Part shown: positions 18,304 through 25,456 of the stretch, one piece after another
Numbering within the stretch: the first letter of the stretch is position 1
Layout: each line of letters starts with the position of its first letter
NCBI RefSeq assembly: GCF_001180025.1
Contig: NZ_CVSK01000067.1
Location: 1 to 64,000 of the forward strand
DNA: 64,000 nt
Source: Candidatus Pelagibacter communis
GTDB taxonomy: Bacteria; Pseudomonadota; Alphaproteobacteria; Pelagibacterales; Pelagibacteraceae
Reading direction: 5' to 3'
The notes under the pieces: model-generated
What the model saw: the letters and a program-made list of their open reading frames with translations, nothing else
What the model was told of the DNA's origin: nothing
The model's database searches: none
Position numbers and translations under genes: made by a program

Positions 18304-19419
18304 ATGAGTGATAACAAAACTATTGTTAATAGTTGGAACGAATGGGATCCGTTAAAACATGTAATTGTTGGTAGAGCGGATGGAACTTGTATTCCTGCAC
18401 CAGAGCCTGCTTTGGATGCAAAAGTTCCAGAAGACAGCGATATGCGAGGTCAGTTTGGACCAAGAACAAAAGATACTGTCGATAAAGCAAATGAATTATT
18501 AGATAATTTTTCAAATATGCTTGAAAAAAGAGGCATTAAAGTTGATAGACCGACACCAATAGATTTTAATCAAAAAACATCTACACCTGATTGGGAAGCT
18601 GAAACCATGTTTGGCTGCATGCCTCCAAGGGATGTTTTGTTAACTGTGGGAAACGAAATTTTGGAAGCTACAATGAGTTATAGATGTCGTTGGTTTGAAT
18701 ATTTATGTTACCGACCACTTCTAAAAGATTATTATAATCAAGATCCTAACATGAGACACGAGTCTGCTCCAAAGCCAAGGTTAACTGATGCAGATTATAG
18801 AAAAGATTATCTATCAGATAAAATTGGTGTTCAAAAAAGATTAGAGTGGACTGAAAAAAAATATTTTGTAACCACTGAAGAAGAACCATTATTTGATGCA
18901 GCGGACGTATTAAGATTTGGTAAAGACTTGGTTGTACAACATGGATTTACAACAAATTTAAAAGGAATTGATTGGCTTAAAAGACATTATAAAGATCACA
19001 GAGTTCATGCAGTTAACTTCCCAGGTGATCCTTATCCAATTCATATTGATGCAACTTTTACCCCAATTAAAGAGGGTTTAATTATCAATAACCCACAAAG
19101 AAGACTTCCCAAGGAACAAAGAAAACTTTTTGAAGATAATGGTTGGGAAATTGTAGACAGCGCGCAACCAGCACATAACGAACCACCTCCCTTATGCTAT
19201 TCATCAACTTGGCTATCAATGAATGTTTTAGTTTTGGATCCTAAAACTGTATGTGTTGAAAAAAGCGAAAAATATCAAGCTGAACAATTGGATAAATTAG
19301 GAATGGAAGTTATACCAGTAGAACTTAGAGATGCATATGCTTTTGGCGGAGGCTTACATTGTTGTACTGCAGATGTTTACCGAGAGGGTGAACTTAAAGA
19401 TTACTTTCCAAAACAATAA
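18304..19419 (+). CDS. Glycine amidinotransferase (AGAT)-family enzyme
   Basis: A 371-residue pentein-fold amidinotransferase resembling vertebrate L-arginine:glycine amidinotransferase. The triad is present with nearly the human spacing: Asp198 in FDAADVLRFGKD (human Asp254), His247 in IHIDATF (His303) and nucleophile Cys353 in GGGLHCCTADV (Cys407). Such enzymes move an amidino group from arginine to an amine such as glycine, giving guanidinoacetate and ornithine, or run in reverse. The acceptor cannot be read from sequence. The neighbours, creatinase and threonine aldolase (a glycine source), support guanidinoacetate/glycine chemistry. Confidence 0.85.
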   Translation: MSDNKTIVNSWNEWDPLKHVIVGRADGTCIPAPEPALDAKVPEDSDMRGQFGPRTKDTVDKANELLDNFSNMLEKRGIKVDRPTPIDFNQKTSTPDWEAETMFGCMPPRDVLLTVGNEILEATMSYRCRWFEYLCYRPLLKDYYNQDPNMRHESAPKPRLTDADYRKDYLSDKIGVQKRLEWTEKKYFVTTEEEPLFDAADVLRFGKDLVVQHGFTTNLKGIDWLKRHYKDHRVHAVNFPGDPYPIHIDATFTPIKEGLIINNPQRRLPKEQRKLFEDNGWEIVDSAQPAHNEPPPLCYSSTWLSMNVLVLDPKTVCVEKSEKYQAEQLDKLGMEVIPVELRDAYAFGGGLHCCTADVYREGELKDYFPKQ

Positions 19420-19421
19420 TT

Positions 19422-20471
19422 ATGGCAAAAATTAAAATTAAAAGAGAGCGAGTTAAATTCGCTTCTGATAATGTTGCTGGTGCCTGTCCCGAGGTATTAG
19501 ATGCAATTTTAAAAGCCAATGAGGGAGATAGCACTCCTTATGGGAATGATCCAATATCAACTGAATTACAAGATAAGTTTTCAGAAATCTTTGAAAAAGA
19601 GGTAATTATTTTTCCTACTGCCTCAGGTACTGCAGCTAATGCTTTAGCATTATCGACAATGACACCTTCTTATGGAAATATTTATTGTCATAAGATGTCC
19701 CATATAAATACAGATGAATGTGGTGCACCTGAATTTTATACAGGAGGGGGAAAGTTAGTTACTTTAAATGGAGTGATGGGAAAAATAACAGCAGAGGAGT
19801 TGGATCAATCGATAGGTGGAAAAGGGATTGTTCATCATACACAACCTTCATCAGTTAGTATTACTCAGGTTTGTGAAACAGGTGAAGTTTATCAATTAGA
19901 GGAAATTAAAAAAATTGCAGAAATCACTCATAAACATAATTTAAATTTACATATGGATGGAGCCAGATTTGCTAATGCATTGGTTTCTTTAGACGCAACT
20001 CCTGCTGAAATGACATGGAGATCTGGGGTTGATGTTTTGTCATTTGGAGCAACTAAAAATGGATGTCTAGCAGCTGAAGCAATTATATTTTTTAAGAAAG
20101 AATTAGTTGGAGACATTGCTTTTTTAATGAAAAGAGCAGGGCATTTATTATCTAAAATGCGTTTTGTCTCTGCACAATTAGATGCGTACATTTCAAATGA
20201 TGTTTGGTTGAGAAATGCAAAACACGCTAATTTAATGGGTAAAAAATTAAGCGATGGCTTAAGCAAGCATAATGATATTGAAATTGCTTATCCAACAGAA
20301 GCAAATGAAGTATTTGCAAAATTTCCAAGAGAAAAAATAGAACATCTAAATTCTGAGGGTTACAAAATGAATGAAGAAGAATTAGATGGAAAAGCGGTAA
20401 GGTTAGTTGCTGCTTGGAATACTAAAGATAGTGATGTTGATGAATTATTAAATACAATTAAAGCTAATTAG
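19422..20471 (+). CDS. ltaE: Low-specificity L-threonine aldolase
   Basis: A 349-residue PLP fold-type I enzyme of the beta-eliminating lyase family that cleaves L-threonine or allo-threonine to glycine and acetaldehyde. Visible are FPTASGTAANALAL (about residue 65), HMDGARFANALVSL with the PLP-contacting Asp and LSFGATKNGCLAAEAII with the Schiff-base Lys. It begins 2 bases after the amidinotransferase stop, so the two are co-transcribed. Glycine it forms could be the acceptor for the amidinotransferase. The 3' end overlaps the convergent small gene by 8 bases. Confidence 0.9.
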   Translation: MAKIKIKRERVKFASDNVAGACPEVLDAILKANEGDSTPYGNDPISTELQDKFSEIFEKEVIIFPTASGTAANALALSTMTPSYGNIYCHKMSHINTDECGAPEFYTGGGKLVTLNGVMGKITAEELDQSIGGKGIVHHTQPSSVSITQVCETGEVYQLEEIKKIAEITHKHNLNLHMDGARFANALVSLDATPAEMTWRSGVDVLSFGATKNGCLAAEAIIFFKKELVGDIAFLMKRAGHLLSKMRFVSAQLDAYISNDVWLRNAKHANLMGKKLSDGLSKHNDIEIAYPTEANEVFAKFPREKIEHLNSEGYKMNEEELDGKAVRLVAAWNTKDSDVDELLNTIKAN

Positions 20472-20691
20472 GATTTTCTTTTAAAAAATTAATATACTTT
20501 ATAACTTCATCATACTGTTCATCAGGAATATCTTTATAACTTGCATTAAATTTGCTTTTCACACATATAGCAACATGAGCGTATGGGTTTCTTCCTTTAG
20601 GGTGATTTGGATGGTCAGGTAATTGCCCCACCAAATAATCGCCAGCATCCTGAATAATTTTCCAGAGTTTCTGCGAGTTTTCTGGCGTCAT
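20464..20691 (-). CDS. Conserved small hypothetical protein at the island edge
   Basis: A 75-residue protein beginning MTPENSQKLWKIIQDAGDYL, with central PDHPNHPKGRNPYAHVA and a C-terminal SYKDIPDEQYDEVIKYINFL. The last part resembles the short phage ORF6C-type segment, but weakly. Function unknown. Its first ~20 codons are duplicated, in diverged and truncated form, at 25601-25669, so the gene marks one edge of an accessory region. It is convergent with ltaE with an 8-base overlap, which argues that it is a real, settled gene. Confidence 0.6.
   Translation of the reverse strand: MTPENSQKLWKIIQDAGDYLVGQLPDHPNHPKGRNPYAHVAICVKSKFNASYKDIPDEQYDEVIKYINFLKENPN
20631..20670. repeat. Repeat A, left copy (40 bases)
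   Basis: A 40-base sequence inside the 5' part of the small gene at 20464-20691 recurs in the same orientation at 25609-25648 with a single mismatch (A for T). Weaker similarity extends to the start codon, giving equal 61-base segments (20631-20691 and 25609-25669). Confidence 0.85.
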
Positions 20692-20709
20692 ACTACTCTA
20701 AACCTTGTT

Positions 20710-20742
20710 TTATCTAAAAAAGATCTAGTTTTGTGTCTAGTT
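20710..20742. repeat. Repeat B, left copy (33 bases)
   Basis: A 33-base direct repeat starting TTATCTAAAAAAGATCTAG and ending CTAGTT, found again at 25461-25493 with one mismatch (T for C). It lies just upstream of the small gene's start and contains two CTAGTT words 12 bases apart. It may be an attachment or recombination site of the 20.7-25.5 kb island. Confidence 0.85.
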
Positions 20743-20767
20743 ATATAATGAAATCTTTTAAACAAAC

Positions 20768-20968
20768 TTATCTTCTTTTAGCTCTGTATTTTTCGTTAAT
20801 ACTATCGATATAAACCCTTATTTTTTCTCTTTCCGTAACACGTCTAGATTCTACTAATTTATCCTGTAATTTTTTTCTTTTACTTTTTTCTAAGTAAGAA
20901 TAATAAATTGGAATTAAAATTGTTAATCCAACTATTACTATAGCTAATAATATTTGCCAATTATTCAT
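20768..20968 (-). CDS. Small single-span membrane protein, unknown function
   Basis: A 66-residue protein with one N-terminal hydrophobic helix (LLAIVIVGLTILIPIYYSYL) followed by a strongly charged tail rich in Lys, Arg and Glu. No family is recognised. It is probably a membrane-anchored protein with a cytoplasmic basic tail. It lies between repeat B and a 193-base noncoding stretch and is divergent from the gene at 21162. Confidence 0.5.
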   Translation of the reverse strand: MNNWQILLAIVIVGLTILIPIYYSYLEKSKRKKLQDKLVESRRVTEREKIRVYIDSINEKYRAKRR

Positions 20969-21161
20969 AAAAAATATTTGTATATTATTATTGATAAAAA
21001 TTCTACCTGAGTTGATGATTATTTAGATTTTAAAGGGATTAATTTAGATATGATTAACCATATATCATTAATATACTTTTGTCTATGAAAAAGTGAAATT
21101 GAAAAAAAAAAATTTTAAAAAGTAAAAAAATTTTTACACCATAGGTGTATCAAAATTATTT
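20969..21161. promoter_or_regulatory. Divergent intergenic region with likely promoters
   Basis: A 193-base noncoding gap between two divergent genes. It is extremely AT-rich, with no ORF of note, and contains the palindrome at 21135-21149 close to the right-hand start. By its position it must hold promoters for both sides, but no confident -35/-10 pair can be assigned against this base composition. Confidence 0.4.
21135..21149. promoter_or_regulatory. Palindromic operator-like site
   Basis: TACACC-ATA-GGTGTA is a perfect inverted repeat of six bases with a three-base centre, ending 12 bases upstream of the ATG at 21162. It is GC-richer than its surroundings, and such sites commonly bind a dimeric HTH repressor. 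The HTH-like protein at 21680-21955 in the same gene run is a candidate binder (inference). Confidence 0.5.
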
Positions 21162-21668
21162 ATGAATGAAAAAGAGAGAATAGAATATATTAAAAAGGAA
21201 TGGAAAAAATTCTTAGAAAAAAATTCTAAGAGAGATATAGATATTTCTAAAATTAAATCCATAGATGAAGTTAAACAAGCATTAAAAATACGAGAAGCTG
21301 TAGAATATATTTCCGAAGAATTTAATGTTGGCTTATCTGATGAACAAGTTGTTCTGTTATCTGATGCTTTAATTGAAAAAACAGTAATAGATGAAAAAGG
21401 AGAAATTAAAGAATTAAAATCTCGTGAGGGCAGGCCATATTTTTTTTCTCAAAACGTATTCCTGATGATAACCAGATTAGAGTTTGCTGTACTTGTAAGA
21501 GAGTTACAGAGATTAGATAGACCAGAAATATCAGAGATTTTTGAAGATATTCGTGAGCCAGATGCAATTAAGCTAAATAATATTTTAGAAAAAGATAATA
21601 TAAAAATTGAAAATAACAATGATTATCCTAGAATAAGAGGATATCATCTAACTGATATAAATAAATAA
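21162..21668 (+). CDS. Hypothetical protein, first gene of the HTH-HNH-helicase run
   Basis: A 168-residue soluble, charged protein with no recognised family. It is largely helical in character (KERIEYIKKEWKKFLEKN at the start) with a central EGRPYFFSQNVFLMITRLEF segment and no cysteine pairs, signal peptide or membrane segment. It is preceded by the palindrome at 21135-21149 and followed 11 bases later by the HTH-like gene. It may be a regulatory or accessory part of the module; function unknown. Confidence 0.6.
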   Translation: MNEKERIEYIKKEWKKFLEKNSKRDIDISKIKSIDEVKQALKIREAVEYISEEFNVGLSDEQVVLLSDALIEKTVIDEKGEIKELKSREGRPYFFSQNVFLMITRLEFAVLVRELQRLDRPEISEIFEDIREPDAIKLNNILEKDNIKIENNNDYPRIRGYHLTDINK

Positions 21669-21679
21669 AGATTTAAGAT

Positions 21680-21955
21680 ATGGCTGATAAAATAAAATAT
21701 GGAAATACCTCAGCTTTAACTGAATATATGATTGAAGGTAACAGAGTATCAAGACTCGAATCGTTGCTATTATTCGGGGTACAAAATTTTACAGCTGTTC
21801 TTACAATCATCAAAAGAAAAGGATTTATTGTAAAAAAAACACCCGTTTCTATGGCCAAAATTTTAAGGCGAATAAATAAAGATCTTAAGTGCGAGCCACC
21901 AAAAAATTTACCCATAAGAGATATAATAATGAGTGAATGGTGGATAAGTAAATGA
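21680..21955 (+). CDS. Small helix-turn-helix-like protein
   Basis: A 91-residue protein. The segment SRLESLLLFGVQNFTAVLTIIKRKGFIVKK resembles, in recalled pattern, the small phage-type HTH family (PF14090-like) in which a helix pair is followed by a basic KRKG turn and a strand. It would bind DNA. The gene overlaps the HNH gene by 4 bases (ATGA), so the two are translationally coupled. Assignment of the HTH family is tentative. Confidence 0.55.
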   Translation: MADKIKYGNTSALTEYMIEGNRVSRLESLLLFGVQNFTAVLTIIKRKGFIVKKTPVSMAKILRRINKDLKCEPPKNLPIRDIIMSEWWISK

Positions 21956-22149
21956 GCAGATCTTTTAGTCAAAGACAAAGAAAAATTTTAGAGATAGTTG
22001 GTGGAAACACTTGTGCTTCTTGTGGCAAAAATCTTAAGGATGGATTCCATGCCGATCATGTAATACCTTACTCTAAAAAAGGTAAGACAATATTAAACAA
22101 TGGGCAAGCTTTATGTCCAAAGTGTAATTTAAAAAAGGGTGCAAAGTAA
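21952..22149 (+). CDS. Small HNH endonuclease
   Basis: A 65-residue protein that is essentially a bare HNH domain: zinc knuckle CASC (Cys21, Cys24), FHADHVIPYSKKG (Asp35, His36), ILNNGQAL with the central Asn and CPKCNLKKG (Cys55, Cys58). HNH domains cut DNA in restriction, homing and phage packaging proteins. It overlaps the HTH-like gene and ends directly before the helicase ATG with no gap, so nuclease and helicase are probably made together. Confidence 0.8.
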   Translation: MSRSFSQRQRKILEIVGGNTCASCGKNLKDGFHADHVIPYSKKGKTILNNGQALCPKCNLKKGAK

Positions 22150-23826
22150 ATGTCATTGTCTTTAAGATCTTGGCAAGACCAAGCAGTAAATAAGTCTTTA
22201 AATTGGTATTTTAGCCAGGAACAAGCAAATAATAAATTTTTAATTAATGCTGCACCTGGTGCTGGAAAAACTATTTGTGCTGCTGTAATCGCAAAAAAAC
22301 TTATTGAAAAAGAGGCTGTAAAAAGAGTTATTGTTATAGCACCAAGAAAGGAAGTTGTAAGACAATGGAAAGATGAGTTTAAAGCTGTAACTGGCAGAAC
22401 TATGCTTGTTGTAGTAGGTAAAAACGAGGATCAGGGATTAGATGTTTGTGCAACCTGGAACTCAGTAAATGATCAAAAAGATTTATTCCAAACAATTTGT
22501 GAAACAGATAACACTTTAGTTATATGCGATGAACATCATCATGCGGCGGTTAAAGCTGCTTGGGGAGAAAGTGCTGATAGCGCATTTTTAAAAGCAAAAT
22601 ATGTTTTAATTTTAACTGGAACACCAATACGTAGTGATGGCGAAAGACCTGTTTGGTTTGAATATTCTGGTGGGGAGATTACGCATCCTGAAGAAGGCCA
22701 GTATACACTTACATATGGTGAAGCAGTAGATTTAAAATATTGTAGACCAGCATTTTTTCATCGACATGAAGGTAAATTCACTGTTGTTCTTAAAGATGAA
22801 AATGATCCAATATTTGTATCAGGGACAACAGGCATAGAAATAGATGAAAAAAAGCATACTAAAAAATTTATTGGAGCAATTCAAAAATCTTGCGATTTTT
22901 ACACATTAGCCAGGTCACCAAAATATAAAAAGGACGGAAAAACACCTGATTTAAATTCTTATCAAGCATCAATGTTAGAGTGGGGGATATCTAAACTTGA
23001 AGATATCAAAGAAAGATTACCAAATGCTGGAGGGTTAGTTATTGCACCTAATATTAAGGTTGCTGAGTACATGGCTGATACTCTTAAAGAATTAACAGGC
23101 GAAAAACCAATGTTGGTTCATAGCAATATGTCCAATGCAGATAGTTTAATTGAAGCATTTAGAGAGAGTAACAAGGATTGGATCGTATCTGTTGCAATGA
23201 TCAGTGAAGGTGTAGATATAAAAAGATTAAGAGTTCTTGTTTATCTTCCAAATGCACAAACTGAATTATCTTTTAGACAAGCATTGGGAAGAGTTGTTAG
23301 ATCTGCAGGAAAAAACGATGACTCTAGCGCATATGTGGTAATGCCTACTCATAATATTTTTGAAGATTATGCTCGTAGAGTAGAAAGAGAGATGAAATTA
23401 ATCAAAATAAAAGAATCCTCAAAAAATACAAAAATTTGTCCTAAGTGTGAGGAGGAAAATGACAAAAGTAACGTTGAATGTAAATTTTGTGGATATGAAT
23501 TTCCTCAAAGATCAACAAGATTTAAAGTGTGCGAAAACGATGGTTGTGGTCATCAAAACCCAGTAAATCTAGATGAATGCCAAAAATGTGGTGAGAAGTT
23601 TGGTCATGATTTTGTTATTACATTAGATAATGCTTTGAGAATGGGTGGAATTGCAAGAGAAATGGATGTAGATGAGGCCGATGTTCAAGAGGCTGAAAAA
23701 TATTATAAGAATATTAGAAAAGAAATTTTAGAAAGTGGTGATGCACGAGTGATTGAGGTTTTAAGCTTGTTTCCAGATGAAGCGCTAGTTAAATTAAAAA
23801 GAATACTAGATAAAGCATCAAAATAA
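22150..23826 (+). CDS. SF2 DEAD/DEAH-type helicase with C-terminal zinc ribbons
   Basis: A 558-residue superfamily 2 ATPase. Motif I APGAGKT is near residue 35, motif II DEHH near 127, motif III LTGTPIRSDG near 155, and the C-terminal RecA domain ends with RQALGRVVRSAG (motif VI). After it come zinc-binding pairs: CPKCEEEN...CKFCGYEFP and CENDGCGH...CQKCGEKFG, then a helical tail. The layout resembles helicases of restriction or phage/plasmid origin rather than housekeeping ones. It follows the HNH gene without a gap. Whether it unwinds DNA or translocates is not known. Confidence 0.85.
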   Translation: MSLSLRSWQDQAVNKSLNWYFSQEQANNKFLINAAPGAGKTICAAVIAKKLIEKEAVKRVIVIAPRKEVVRQWKDEFKAVTGRTMLVVVGKNEDQGLDVCATWNSVNDQKDLFQTICETDNTLVICDEHHHAAVKAAWGESADSAFLKAKYVLILTGTPIRSDGERPVWFEYSGGEITHPEEGQYTLTYGEAVDLKYCRPAFFHRHEGKFTVVLKDENDPIFVSGTTGIEIDEKKHTKKFIGAIQKSCDFYTLARSPKYKKDGKTPDLNSYQASMLEWGISKLEDIKERLPNAGGLVIAPNIKVAEYMADTLKELTGEKPMLVHSNMSNADSLIEAFRESNKDWIVSVAMISEGVDIKRLRVLVYLPNAQTELSFRQALGRVVRSAGKNDDSSAYVVMPTHNIFEDYARRVEREMKLIKIKESSKNTKICPKCEEENDKSNVECKFCGYEFPQRSTRFKVCENDGCGHQNPVNLDECQKCGEKFGHDFVITLDNALRMGGIAREMDVDEADVQEAEKYYKNIRKEILESGDARVIEVLSLFPDEALVKLKRILDKASK

Positions 23827-23891
23827 TTTATATCAATTTTAAGACAAAATTCAGTCTAATTATTAACATCAGAAAATGTTTTTATTAATTA

Positions 23892-24200
23892 TTGAAAATC
23901 TCAGAACTTAATAAAATAACAAAAATAATTACAGGAGAATTAAGGCTCTTCCCAGATCCAGTAAGGCTTTTAGCTCCAAAATTGTTAAATTATACAAAAA
24001 ATTATAGAGATTTTTTAATATTATTTGAACTGTCAAAATTTCAATCAAACAGAAGTCAAATTTTAAAGATAATTCAAAATAATCAATTTATTTCTGAAAA
24101 ACTAAGCGAACTTATAAAAAGAAAATCTAATAAAAAAATAAATAACAAAATTAATAACATGCTTGAAAAAATACATAACAATGAGGAAATTAACTTATGA
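23892..24200 (+). CDS. Small hypothetical protein
   Basis: A 102-residue basic, helical protein read from a TTG start (no ATG is available in frame). It contains ELRLFPDPVRLLAPKLLNY and a Lys/Asn-rich C-terminus. No family is recognised. It overlaps the next small membrane-protein gene by 4 bases (ATGA), which supports translation. It lies 65 bases downstream of the helicase and may be co-transcribed with it. Confidence 0.45.
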   Translation: MKISELNKITKIITGELRLFPDPVRLLAPKLLNYTKNYRDFLILFELSKFQSNRSQILKIIQNNQFISEKLSELIKRKSNKKINNKINNMLEKIHNNEEINL

Positions 24201-24388
24201 TAGATTATCTATTTTATTTATGTGTCGATATTCTTGTTTGGATAGCAAATTTTACTGGAACAAGTTATGAGTTTGTTAATATAGTAATATTTGTTGTTGG
24301 TTATCCATTATTTGCAATAGCTTTGCTTTTAATAATTTATTTCCAATATAAAAAAATAAAAAAAATAGAGCATAAACTTGATTTATGA
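24197..24388 (+). CDS. Small membrane protein, two predicted spans
   Basis: A 63-residue protein with hydrophobic segments LFYLCVDILVWIANF and IVIFVVGYPLFAIALLLIIY, then a short basic tail. No family is recognised. Its start overlaps the upstream gene's stop (ATGA). Small membrane proteins next to a nuclease/helicase set could be effectors, but there is no direct evidence of that here. Confidence 0.45.
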   Translation: MIDYLFYLCVDILVWIANFTGTSYEFVNIVIFVVGYPLFAIALLLIIYFQYKKIKKIEHKLDL

Positions 24389-24548
24389 ATTTCTAATAGT
24401 AATTTTAATCAAAAAATTTATTGGTTTTGTTAATTTAATCTTAGAGATTTTTTTGTTAGGTTATTTACCTCTTTGGTCTATTAAAAAAATTAATCTTTTT
24501 AAAAACATAATTAAGTCAAAAATAAAACATCTAAGAATGATTTGCTAG
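24378..24548 (+). CDS. Possible tiny membrane protein (TTG start)
   Basis: An open frame of 56 codons from a TTG at 24378 to the TAG at 24546-24548, overlapping the preceding gene by 11 bases. The product would have a hydrophobic stretch (FLIVILIKKFIGFVNLILEI) and a basic C-terminus. The hydrophobic composition and overlap resemble the neighbour, but AT-rich noncoding DNA often yields such frames, so this is a weak call. Confidence 0.25.
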   Translation: MIYEFLIVILIKKFIGFVNLILEIFLLGYLPLWSIKKINLFKNIIKSKIKHLRMIC

Positions 24549-24704
24549 GCATATGCATTGGATTTCAATCCTTTTCTATCGTATTCCGCTTTTTTTATTA
24601 TCTCCCTTGTTGCGTAATTCGAACCAAACGAAAAGGATTGAGACCATTACAAATTACAAACTTTTAACTCTCAAAAAATCAATCAACAATAGGAGTTCCA
24701 ATAT
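24549..24704. other. Noncoding stretch with a long-range inverted repeat
   Basis: A 156-base gap. CAATCCTTTTC (24566-24576) is perfectly complementary to GAAAAGGATTG (24630-24640), giving an 11-bp stem with a ~53-base loop that includes CGTATTCCGC and TTGCGTAATTCGAACC. GC content rises locally. It could be a structured RNA, an mRNA leader for the gene at 24705, or a recombination site. It does not fold as a tRNA by eye. An AGGAG ribosome binding site lies at 24691-24695. Confidence 0.35.
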
Positions 24705-24890
24705 ATGGAAATAGGCCGTGTCTGTAAGTACTGTCACGTGAGTGCTTACGTTGCGTATGATAACTGCGATCCCGTTTATAAACAAACTTTCAAATTTGAA
24801 ATATTACCAGGTGAACACAACAGTTTAGTCTGGGATAAAATCATAAAAATATTTAAGAAAAATGGATACAAAGTGGAGCTCAAATCATGA
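24705..24890 (+). CDS. Small cysteine-containing hypothetical protein
   Basis: A 61-residue protein starting MEIGRVCKYCHVSAYVAYDNC; CxxC and a nearby Cys could bind zinc. The rest is FEILPGEHNSLVWDKIIKIF. No family is recognised. A good AGGAG ribosome binding site lies 9 bases before the ATG, unusual in this gene-packed genome and supportive of real translation. Its stop overlaps the next gene's ATG by 4 bases. Confidence 0.5.
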   Translation: MEIGRVCKYCHVSAYVAYDNCDPVYKQTFKFEILPGEHNSLVWDKIIKIFKKNGYKVELKS

Positions 24891-25456
24891 AAAGAGTTTT
24901 ACTTATTATTTTATTACATCTATCTCTTTTTTTTATTATTTTTGCCTATCACACTCAAGCTGAAGAATTAGAAGAAGAATGGAGCATTGAAAGATTTGAA
25001 AACTTGATATTTGCACGGGTTTATGGAGAGGTAATTCATGGAGATAGTTTAAATTTTTTTATTAGAGCTTCAGATAATTGTGAAAAGGTTTGGCACAATT
25101 TTACATTTTATACATATGAACAACCTGGAGATATAAAACAACTACTTCACAAACATATTCCAATAAAGATTAATAATGAGGAAGTGACAGCATACGTCGA
25201 TCATATTATGCCATTTTTACAAGGATATAGAGTTTTATTTTCCTTAGGATCATTTCCTATCAAAGAATATATTTACAAGTTAAATAATTTTTATATCGAA
25301 GAAAAAAAATTTGAAATTAAAATAATTGATGGACTTGATTTTAAAACTAGTAAATATTTTGATATATCTATCAATAGCTGGAAATTAGATAAACTTGTTC
25401 CATCTGTACTTGAAGCTCACAGAAAATGTAAAGAAATTAGCAATTTAAATAGTTAA
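24887..25456 (+). CDS. Exported hypothetical protein
   Basis: A 189-residue protein with an N-terminal signal peptide (MKRVLLIILLHLSLFFII, with likely cleavage after HTQA). The mature region has two cysteines (DNCEKVW and HRKCKEI) that could form a disulfide in the periplasm. A beta-rich segment RVYGEVIHGDSLNFFIRA follows the signal. No family is recognised. It is coupled by a 4-base overlap to the small Cys protein upstream and ends 4 bases before repeat B. Confidence 0.55.
   Translation: MKRVLLIILLHLSLFFIIFAYHTQAEELEEEWSIERFENLIFARVYGEVIHGDSLNFFIRASDNCEKVWHNFTFYTYEQPGDIKQLLHKHIPIKINNEEVTAYVDHIMPFLQGYRVLFSLGSFPIKEYIYKLNNFYIEEKKFEIKIIDGLDFKTSKYFDISINSWKLDKLVPSVLEAHRKCKEISNLNS

What the first reader, a model, noticed from the sequence alone, without database searches (positions are those of the whole stretch)
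21162..23826. Coupled HTH - HNH nuclease - zinc-ribbon SF2 helicase module, candidate defence system
Four genes with no or overlapping spacing: an orphan 168-residue protein, a 91-residue HTH-like protein, a 65-residue bare HNH nuclease and a 558-residue SF2 helicase with C-terminal zinc ribbons. Small nucleases paired with helicases in accessory islands are a common theme of anti-phage systems (established generally). I do not recognise this exact combination. The orphan small membrane and exported proteins downstream could be effectors or unrelated cargo.
Basis: inference. Interest (0 to 1): 0.6.

Follow-up and report, generated by a model that had tools for sequence, protein, structure and literature searches.

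The report
Helicase–nuclease cassette in swapped defence slots
A compact set of four bacterial genes, built around a DNA-repair-like motor and a small DNA-cutting enzyme, sits in genome positions where some close relatives carry known anti-virus restriction systems or nothing at all, so it is probably an undescribed defence system of an abundant kind of ocean bacterium, though nobody has tested it.

Summary
The four coupled genes are real and belong together. The window is SAR11-type (Pelagibacteraceae). Six distinct loci keep the order: small protein A, HTH_39-type winged helix, HNH nuclease, RadD-like SF2 helicase with two zinc ribbons. They span two families of the order plus a 5.3-Mb alphaproteobacterium in which HNH and helicase are fused. 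Two lines favour defence. (1) Position: the window's interval holds a methyltransferase/Z1/NERD-UvrD restriction cassette in sibling G022; the G047 site is empty in 5 of 7 siblings and holds a type I R-M system in another. The G113 site gave none (0 of 11). (2) Evolution: between two close strains the module is an exchanged allele; HNH has 0 amino-acid changes against 20 synonymous, the HTH 34 against 25. Against: distant HNH-helicase fusions (about 33% identity) occur in viral contigs, at least one beside a replication gene; the nearest characterised protein, RadD, is a repair factor; nothing has been tested. Likely mechanism (inferred): the translocase senses aberrant or invading DNA and licenses HNH cutting, with HTH and A as variable sensor or regulator. 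The downstream exported protein is not a constant part.

The parts
21162..21668 (+). Protein A (168 aa), fast-evolving small protein, role unknown; positional equivalent (93-168 aa) first in all six loci
   Evidence: no hit above cut-off in Pfam, none in PHROGs or NCBIfam; model unusable, pLDDT 55.9
21680..21955 (+). Winged-helix protein of HTH_39 type (91 aa); very variable between two close strains
   Evidence: alignment; homologues hit PF14090 and phrog_4973; 34 nonsynonymous against 25 synonymous codon differences to L003
21952..22149 (+). Bare HNH nuclease (65 aa); metal/active-site pattern C21 C24 H33 D35 H36 N50 C55 C58 N59 kept
   Evidence: PF01844 1.1e-13; 0 nonsynonymous/20 synonymous to L003
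22150..23826 (+). RadD-like SF2 helicase/translocase (558 aa): Walker A 35-41, DEHH 127-130, TGTP 156-159, QALGRVVR 377-384, two C-terminal zinc ribbons
18304..20691 (.). Left flank of the variable slot: amidinotransferase-like gene, ltaE-like gene, 75-aa gene (names by eye); shared with G022 and L003
25681..26148 (-). 155-aa gene, right flank shared with G022 and L003
24887..25456 (+). Exported 189-aa protein; slot neighbour, not a constant part of the module
   Evidence: 99% in L003, 81% in G022 beside an R-M cassette and without the module

Best explanation
A horizontally exchanged anti-phage / anti-mobile-element module without a methyltransferase. A RadD-like SF2 translocase with tandem zinc ribbons loads on abnormal DNA (ends, forks, branched or protein-stripped replication intermediates of an invader) and, by moving, licenses or positions the HNH subunit to nick or cut that DNA. 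The HTH_39 protein, with protein A, gives recognition or keeps the enzyme in check, and varies because invaders vary. SHOWN by computation: gene order, domain content, intact motifs, HNH-helicase fusion in one relative, transfer, occupancy of two of four slots by R-M systems in a sibling, strong constraint on HNH with variable HTH/A in one strain pair. INFERRED: that the four proteins form a complex, that HNH cuts DNA in an ATP-dependent way, that the target is foreign, and the roles of A and HTH.
For: Six of six distinct loci keep A-HTH-HNH-helicase, tightly spaced. HNH and helicase are fused in frame in G607. Patchy: 5 of 397 genomes of the order, of which G000 and G130 carry the same helicase; 2 of 289 of the class, own included. 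The window helicase groups with G607 rather than with the other SAR11 copies (95/99; the five copies together 100/100). Sibling G022 holds two C5 methyltransferases, MTaX1, Z1, HATPase and NERD-UvrD genes in the window's interval. At the G047 site 5 of 7 siblings read are empty with flanks 6 bp apart, and G048 has HsdM/HsdS/HsdR (5.4e-159, 7.6e-43, 6.5e-138). In G115 the island also has an AAA_15 ATPase related to NsnB/AriA models. Two strains whose flanks are 89-100% identical fall to 53% inside the module; HNH 0N/20S against HTH 34N/25S, Fisher p 2e-6. The fold matches RadD (VIA Z 27.2, 339 residues, 4.6 A) and XPB solved with its nuclease Bax1.
Against: No PADLOC model covers the module; the best helicase match is PbeA, 1.3e-20, over part of the helicase (25 of 61 matches shown). 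The slots also carry other genes: at the window slot 5 of 7 siblings read showed no recognisable defence gene by eye; at the G113 slot 11 of 11 siblings read had no match to nine reference proteins, seven of them R-M. Distant HNH-helicase fusions lie in viral contigs, at least one 1.4 kb from a replication initiator. RadD itself is a repair factor. The selection evidence rests on one pair of draft assemblies, one with a frame break in its helicase; the helicase ratio itself does not differ from that of the flanking ltaE (p 0.69), and HNH against helicase gives p 0.051; alignment in the most divergent part may inflate nonsynonymous counts. Base composition of the module (GC 0.320) lies between its flanks (0.345, 0.254), so it gives no foreign signal. 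Protein A is too divergent to prove homology in every locus.
Confidence: 0.57

Rival explanations
1. Phage-derived recombination/replication accessory: a branched-DNA helicase plus HNH resolvase/nickase taken from a mobile element and now carried as accessory cargo, with no immune role.
For: A viral-contig scan with the fused form found 32 loci, 26 of them aligned from the HNH through the helicase core at 26-35% identity, 21 with a ~200-aa partner ORF. Of 72 neighbouring ORFs scanned, three matched replication initiators, three DnaB-like helicases and two RecE/exonuclease VIII models; in L066 the replication initiator lies 1.4 kb upstream. phrog_16 DNA helicase 3.8e-48 and an endonuclease VII-type HNH family match; UvsW is among the PDB matches.
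Against: The four-gene form was not found in viral contigs (HTH scan; helicase scans, of which one search gave three partial relatives of 25-27% that I did not examine; each scan uses only a few peptide patterns). In phage records the best match is 29-32%. Its six loci lie among chromosomal genes by eye. It shares slots with R-M systems.
Confidence: 0.22
2. Accessory DNA-repair module: a RadD-like protein with a dedicated nuclease that processes stalled forks or cross-links in the host itself, comparable to eukaryotic ZRANB3.
For: RadD is the top fold match and has two zinc fingers in the same place (PMC9049331, passages). ZRANB3 couples an ATPase motor and HNH at stalled forks (PMC5481773, passages). 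L003 keeps all four genes at the same site.
Against: Very patchy distribution, transfer between distant lineages, exchange of alleles and the fast-evolving HTH/A do not fit housekeeping repair.
Confidence: 0.13
3. Selfish mobile cassette in which HNH serves spread of the cassette itself (homing-like).
For: Clean insertion at the G047 site (empty flanks 6 bp apart in 5 of 7 siblings read); HNH nucleases are common in mobile elements (general knowledge).
Against: Different sites in different genomes; no integrase or transposase seen by eye among the ORFs beside the module (not searched for); no repeat of 12 nt or more of the neighbouring tRNA-Ala within the 16 kb read in G607; an ATP-driven helicase partner is not typical of homing (general knowledge).
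Confidence: 0.06

Closest known systems
RadD (YejH) DNA repair protein
   Same: SF2 core fold (VIA Z 27.2 to 8h5y; Foldseek 1.5e-15 to 6jde), similar length (558 against 586 aa), two zinc-finger elements after the motor core.
   Different: About 20% identity; NCBIfam RadD score 60.8 against cut-off 720; RadD has no HNH partner gene (recalled) and is a repair factor.
PbeA of CxC-ABC/DndE-linked systems (PbeABCD)
   Same: SF2 helicase of restriction type with an endonuclease, accompanied by a rapidly evolving small protein (PMC10853773 passages); PADLOC PbeA 1.3e-20.
   Different: PbeA carries a fused HKD nuclease, not HNH; no ABC ATPase or DndE was seen beside the window's module.
XPB-Bax1 of archaea
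   Same: SF2 helicase solved in complex with a separate endonuclease; among the best fold matches (6p4o, 6p4f).
   Different: Bax1 is not an HNH nuclease (recalled); a repair pair without HTH_39 (recalled).
ZRANB3
   Same: A motor protein with an HNH nuclease, described as an ATP-dependent endonuclease (PMC5481773 passages).
   Different: Eukaryotic single polypeptide recruited by PCNA.
Actinophage/actinobacterial-plasmid HNH-SF2 fusion plus ~200-aa partner (unnamed; found here)
   Same: HNH directly before the SF2 core, conserved NGQALC..CNL.KG.
   Different: About 30-35% identity, match ends near residue 471 of 612 so the C-terminal part is unlike, a different downstream partner; no HTH_39 or protein A recognised, but not systematically looked for.
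Hachiman (HamAB)
   Same: Helicase-nuclease defence complex titled as sensing genome integrity (a reference title).
   Different: HamB is Ski2-like (passage) and HamA a DUF1837 nuclease (recalled); not among the 25 of 61 PADLOC helicase matches shown.

Membership tests
RadD equivalog | NCBIfam NF053632 score at or above 720 | tested here: not met
   60.8 bits (window) and 43.2 bits (G607)
RadD equivalog | RadD core fold with two zinc fingers after the second RecA-like domain | tested here: met
   for the core; zinc ribbons by conserved cysteines only, since the model is below pLDDT 50 there
HNH endonuclease | PF01844 above gathering score with HNH residues | tested here: met
   51.6 against 21.4; residues kept in six sequences
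HTH_39 winged helix | PF14090 above gathering score | tested here: inconclusive
   Window protein: no hit. Homologues L020 and L018: 31.0 and 24.5 against 21.3; 33% and 45% identity to the window protein
PbeABCD / Dnd-linked restriction | HKD nuclease fused to the helicase, with DndE and CxC ABC ATPase | tested here: not met
   No HKD (PLD-type) match in the helicase at E<=1 in Pfam; no ATPase or DndE-like gene among the ten window proteins scanned
Classical restriction-modification | Cognate methyltransferase in the operon | tested here: not met
   None among the window proteins scanned; none seen by eye next to the module in the other five loci
Any PADLOC-DB 2.0 defence system | Match of system proteins over most of their length | tested here: not met
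   Only partial helicase matches and generic HNH matches in the rows shown (25 of 61 for the helicase)
Anti-phage defence system (functional) | Reduces phage or plasmid success | not testable with these tools
   Needs bench work
Phage replication module | Located with phage replication or structural genes | tested here: not met
   Six loci of the four-gene form lie among chromosomal genes by reading the ORF lists, not by a family scan of every neighbour; met in at least one distant fused cousin, L066

The most novel reading that the evidence does not exclude
An unnamed class of immune module: a RadD-like translocase is turned into an invader-DNA sensor and works with a dedicated HNH cutter, while a swappable winged-helix/protein-A pair carries specificity (like the specificity subunit of restriction systems) and is exchanged between strains. 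It is the four-gene chromosomal branch of a wider HNH-SF2 lineage whose other branch is used by actinophages themselves.
Probability: 0.33. Interest if true: 0.75.

Novelty: new variant of a known kind. Interest (0 to 1): 0.57.

Why it matters
SAR11 bacteria are among the most abundant cells in the sea and are heavily infected by phages (general knowledge), so a small, transferable defence cassette that alternates with restriction systems at fixed chromosomal slots would be a concrete, testable part of that interaction. It would also show how a repair translocase of the RadD type can be paired with a nuclease to act on foreign DNA, and the slots give a simple way to find more undescribed systems.

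Tried and rejected
Helicase scans of viral contigs gave no close relative (one search gave three partial ones of 25-27%, not examined), nor did an HTH scan. PADLOC gave no system. I first took ExoI/RmuC in G115 as island cargo because PADLOC hits an SbcB model; sibling comparison showed ExoI next to this place in 8 of 8 siblings read and an RmuC-like gene in 7 of 8, without the module, so they are neighbours. Integration at the tRNA-Ala of G607 was dropped for lack of a repeat. The G113 site gave no R-M in 11 of 11 siblings read. Protein A fold: model at pLDDT 55.9, not searched. In the structural comparison the 50 rows listed by VIA-align were, by their titles, SF2-type motors; a family missing there proves nothing. 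Literature: the listings (15 of 635 papers shown; 10 of 13 shown), and passages of two papers, showed no description of this gene set; this covers only the open library held and those terms. (SAR11 defence) were seen as listings only. The effector role of the downstream exported protein was rejected as constant, since it occurs without the module in G022.

Rows left out before counts: six of 61 relatives matched, but only G000 and G047 over the full helicase; the other four (22-32%, partial) were not followed. L003 helicase is not in the tree (two frames); 16 of the 32 viral loci were in the tree and 20 in the structure alignment; L030 was left out of the tree. Viral neighbours: L080, L083 and L093-L096 were not used, and 72 of the 153 ORFs listed (helicases and partners among them) were scanned. 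L060 (short), L110 and L116 were fetched but not read; the G005, G010 and G011 slots were not fetched. Of the nine gamma loci only L022 was read for its partner, together with plasmid loci L031-L033. In the slot comparison only G022 and G024 inserts, G048, G102 and G085 inserts and part of G115 were scanned with family models; the rest was judged by eye or by blastp.
Full report
What is there. The window lies in a draft genome (G000: 872,902 bases, 60% complete). A record named Pelagibacteraceae bacterium AG-447-M05 has a 100%-identical helicase and AG-447-P18 a 94%-identical one, so the window is of SAR11 type (the equation of these names is general knowledge). Pfam gives HNH for the 65-aa protein and ResIII plus Helicase_C for the 558-aa protein, all above cut-off; the 168-aa protein has no hit above cut-off and the 91-aa protein none at all.

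Conserved module. Helicase relatives of 45% identity or more were found at six distinct loci: window (the same as AG-447-M05/G130), L003 (AG-447-P18), G047, G113, G115 and G607 (identities 94, 45, 57, 46 and 53%). All six have the same order: A, HTH, HNH, helicase. G607 is a 5.3-Mb member of the same class; there the HNH reading frame runs on into the helicase without a stop, a natural fusion, and overlaps the HTH gene by 4 bp. The HTH protein is a HTH_39 winged helix by the homologues in L020 (G607) and L018 (G113). Protein A is the weak point: 16-20% identity outside L003, so for it homology rests mainly on position.

Distribution. Matches: 5 of 397 genomes of the order, two of them with the same helicase; 2 of 289 of the class, own included; 1 of 75 of the G607 family, G607 itself; 3 of 43 of the G115 genus. 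In the phylum sample 10 of 398 matched, but the nine others end at profile position 414-435 of 557 and are of another type; plasmid relatives of that type are about 30% identical. In the four examined loci of that type (L022, L031-L033) the gene before the helicase is a 174-225 aa protein without any HNH match.

Transfer. In a 36-row tree the five module helicases form one group (100/100) and the window's sits with G607 (95/99) rather than with the other SAR11 copies. The tool warned of long branches between the groups, so the relation of the module group to the other two groups is not claimed.

The slot argument. (1) In the window the module lies between the ltaE-like/75-aa genes and an exported-protein gene followed by a 155-aa gene. 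The ltaE-like protein was found in 12 of 61 genomes and the 155-aa protein in 2 of 61, own included. I read the stretch beside ltaE in seven siblings. In G022 (amidinotransferase, ltaE, 75-aa and 155-aa proteins 89-99% identical, exported protein 81%) the interval holds a cassette of two C5 methyltransferases, MTaX1, Z1, HATPase and NERD-UvrD genes, placed on the other side of the exported gene. In G024 two DUF4379 proteins with weak DUF559/REase-type matches stand there. In the other five I saw no defence gene, by eye only. (2) In G047 the module-bearing insert (with two further genes upstream and the exported gene) lies between acs and a 138-aa gene; acs was found in 37 of 43 genomes. Of seven siblings read, five have these genes 6 bp apart, one (G048) has HsdM, HsdS and HsdR there plus an exported protein 32% identical to that of G047, and one has two small genes without a PADLOC hit. 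(3) In G115 the island lies between a 90-aa gene and ExoI; of eight siblings read, six have these genes overlapping by 4 bp, one has a 73-bp gap, and one has three other genes, two of them scanned without a PADLOC hit. The G115 island also carries an AAA_15 ATPase matching NsnB/AriA-type models. (4) In G113 the site gave no R-M in 11 of 11 siblings read. So the position evidence is strong at two sites, suggestive at one and absent at one. No such comparison was made for G607.

Evolution within the site. Window and L003 share the site. DNA identity per 100 bp is 89-99% from 18304 to 21303 and 96-100% from 23804 to 25403, but falls to 53% in the HTH gene and runs at 74-97% through the helicase: the module was exchanged as an allele. 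(A stretch of about 220 bp right of the exported gene is absent from L003.) Differing codons, nonsynonymous/synonymous: protein A 27/28, HTH 34/25, HNH 0/20, helicase 36/162. HTH differs from HNH at p 2e-6 and from the helicase at p 1e-8; protein A differs from the helicase at p 1e-5; HNH against helicase is p 0.051, helicase against ltaE p 0.69, helicase against the amidinotransferase p 0.011. So the cutter is held constant while the DNA-binding and small proteins vary. That pattern is expected if the latter meet changing opponents. It rests on one pair, and the L003 helicase reads in two frames. Base composition gives no foreign signal.

Fold and relatives. The window helicase, modelled with 20 viral relatives, has mean pLDDT 69.9; it is good over most of residues 1-420 except about 211-270, and poor in the zinc-ribbon and C-terminal part. 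The best solved matches by Foldseek are RadD and XPB solved with its nuclease Bax1; by VIA-align RadD is first at Z 27.2 (339 residues, 4.6 A), tied with a chain of a transcription pre-initiation complex at 26.9 (7egb; XPB by recall). RadD has two zinc fingers beyond its motor core (PMC9049331, passages). [quoted passage not shown] NCBIfam's RadD model scores far under its cut-off, so this is RadD-like, not RadD.

The wider HNH-SF2 lineage. With the fused form as query, actinobacterial plasmids and phage PIS 136 proved to carry open frames with HNH directly before the SF2 core (in L040 and L035 the annotated gene starts inside or after the HNH part). A viral-contig scan found 32 loci, 26 aligned from HNH through the helicase core, 21 with a recognisable ~200-aa partner. 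Of 72 neighbouring ORFs scanned against PHROGs, three matched DnaB-like helicase models, three replication initiators, two exonuclease VIII/RecE models, two integrases and three endolysins (25 of 106 families shown); in L066 the initiator lies 1.4 kb upstream of the fusion. So a distant branch is a phage gene, at least once in a replication region. This is the strongest evidence for the rival reading.

Mechanism. Inferred: the motor recognises abnormal or unprotected DNA, perhaps through its zinc ribbons, and its movement brings or licenses HNH for cutting, as in ZRANB3, an ATP-dependent endonuclease (PMC5481773, passages), or PbeA, an SF2-nuclease with a rapidly evolving small partner (PMC10853773, passages). 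HTH_39 and A are the likely recognition or restraint parts. No methyltransferase accompanies the module, so self/non-self discrimination must use something other than a cognate methyl mark made by this operon.

Verdict. The gene set was not described in the papers listed by my searches nor in PADLOC-DB 2.0. It is a new variant of a known kind, the helicase-nuclease defence module.

Noticed in passing
L065-L092 (viral contigs), L035, L040-L042: Recurrent HNH-SF2 helicase fusion with a ~200-aa partner gene directly downstream in actinobacterial phages and plasmids and in IMG/VR contigs (21 of 32 loci by my ORF choice); the partner has no Pfam match in the three tested.
   Followed up: partly
window 24887-25456; L057 12267-12833; L013 2584-3183; L106 3749-4372; L018 11916-12611: Exported ~190-230 aa proteins of one family keep appearing in variable SAR11 slots, beside the module or beside R-M systems (L018 by eye only). 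In L018 (12635-13225) and L106 (4447-5025) a second exported protein with a similar start, by eye, stands next to it.
   Followed up: partly
L032 3898-9386: The distant HNH-less helicase type (divergent HTH regulator, 225-aa protein, helicase) lies 2-3 kb from a CBASS operon on an E. coli plasmid.
   Followed up: no
L003 5979-7655: The helicase of AG-447-P18 reads in two frames; either an assembly error or a decayed gene.
   Followed up: no
window 24197-24548; L018 4265-4660; L019 9369-9674: Small ORFs with 1-3 hydrophobic segments follow the helicase on the same strand within about 400 bp in three of the four SAR11 species loci (window, G113, G115; not G047), without obvious sequence similarity.
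   Followed up: partly
L019 2397-5908: AAA_15 ATPase (711 aa) plus an unknown 458-aa protein in the G115 island, resembling ATPase-partner defence pairs.
   Followed up: partly
L059 2178-5307: Two DUF4379 (treble clef) proteins with weak DUF559/REase-type matches occupy the window's slot in G024; possibly another nuclease system.
   Followed up: partly
L019 10340-12864: ExoI and RmuC next to the G115 island are 63-66% and 25-27% identical to those of siblings whose other neighbours here are mostly 94-100% identical, as if replaced together with the island.
   Followed up: no
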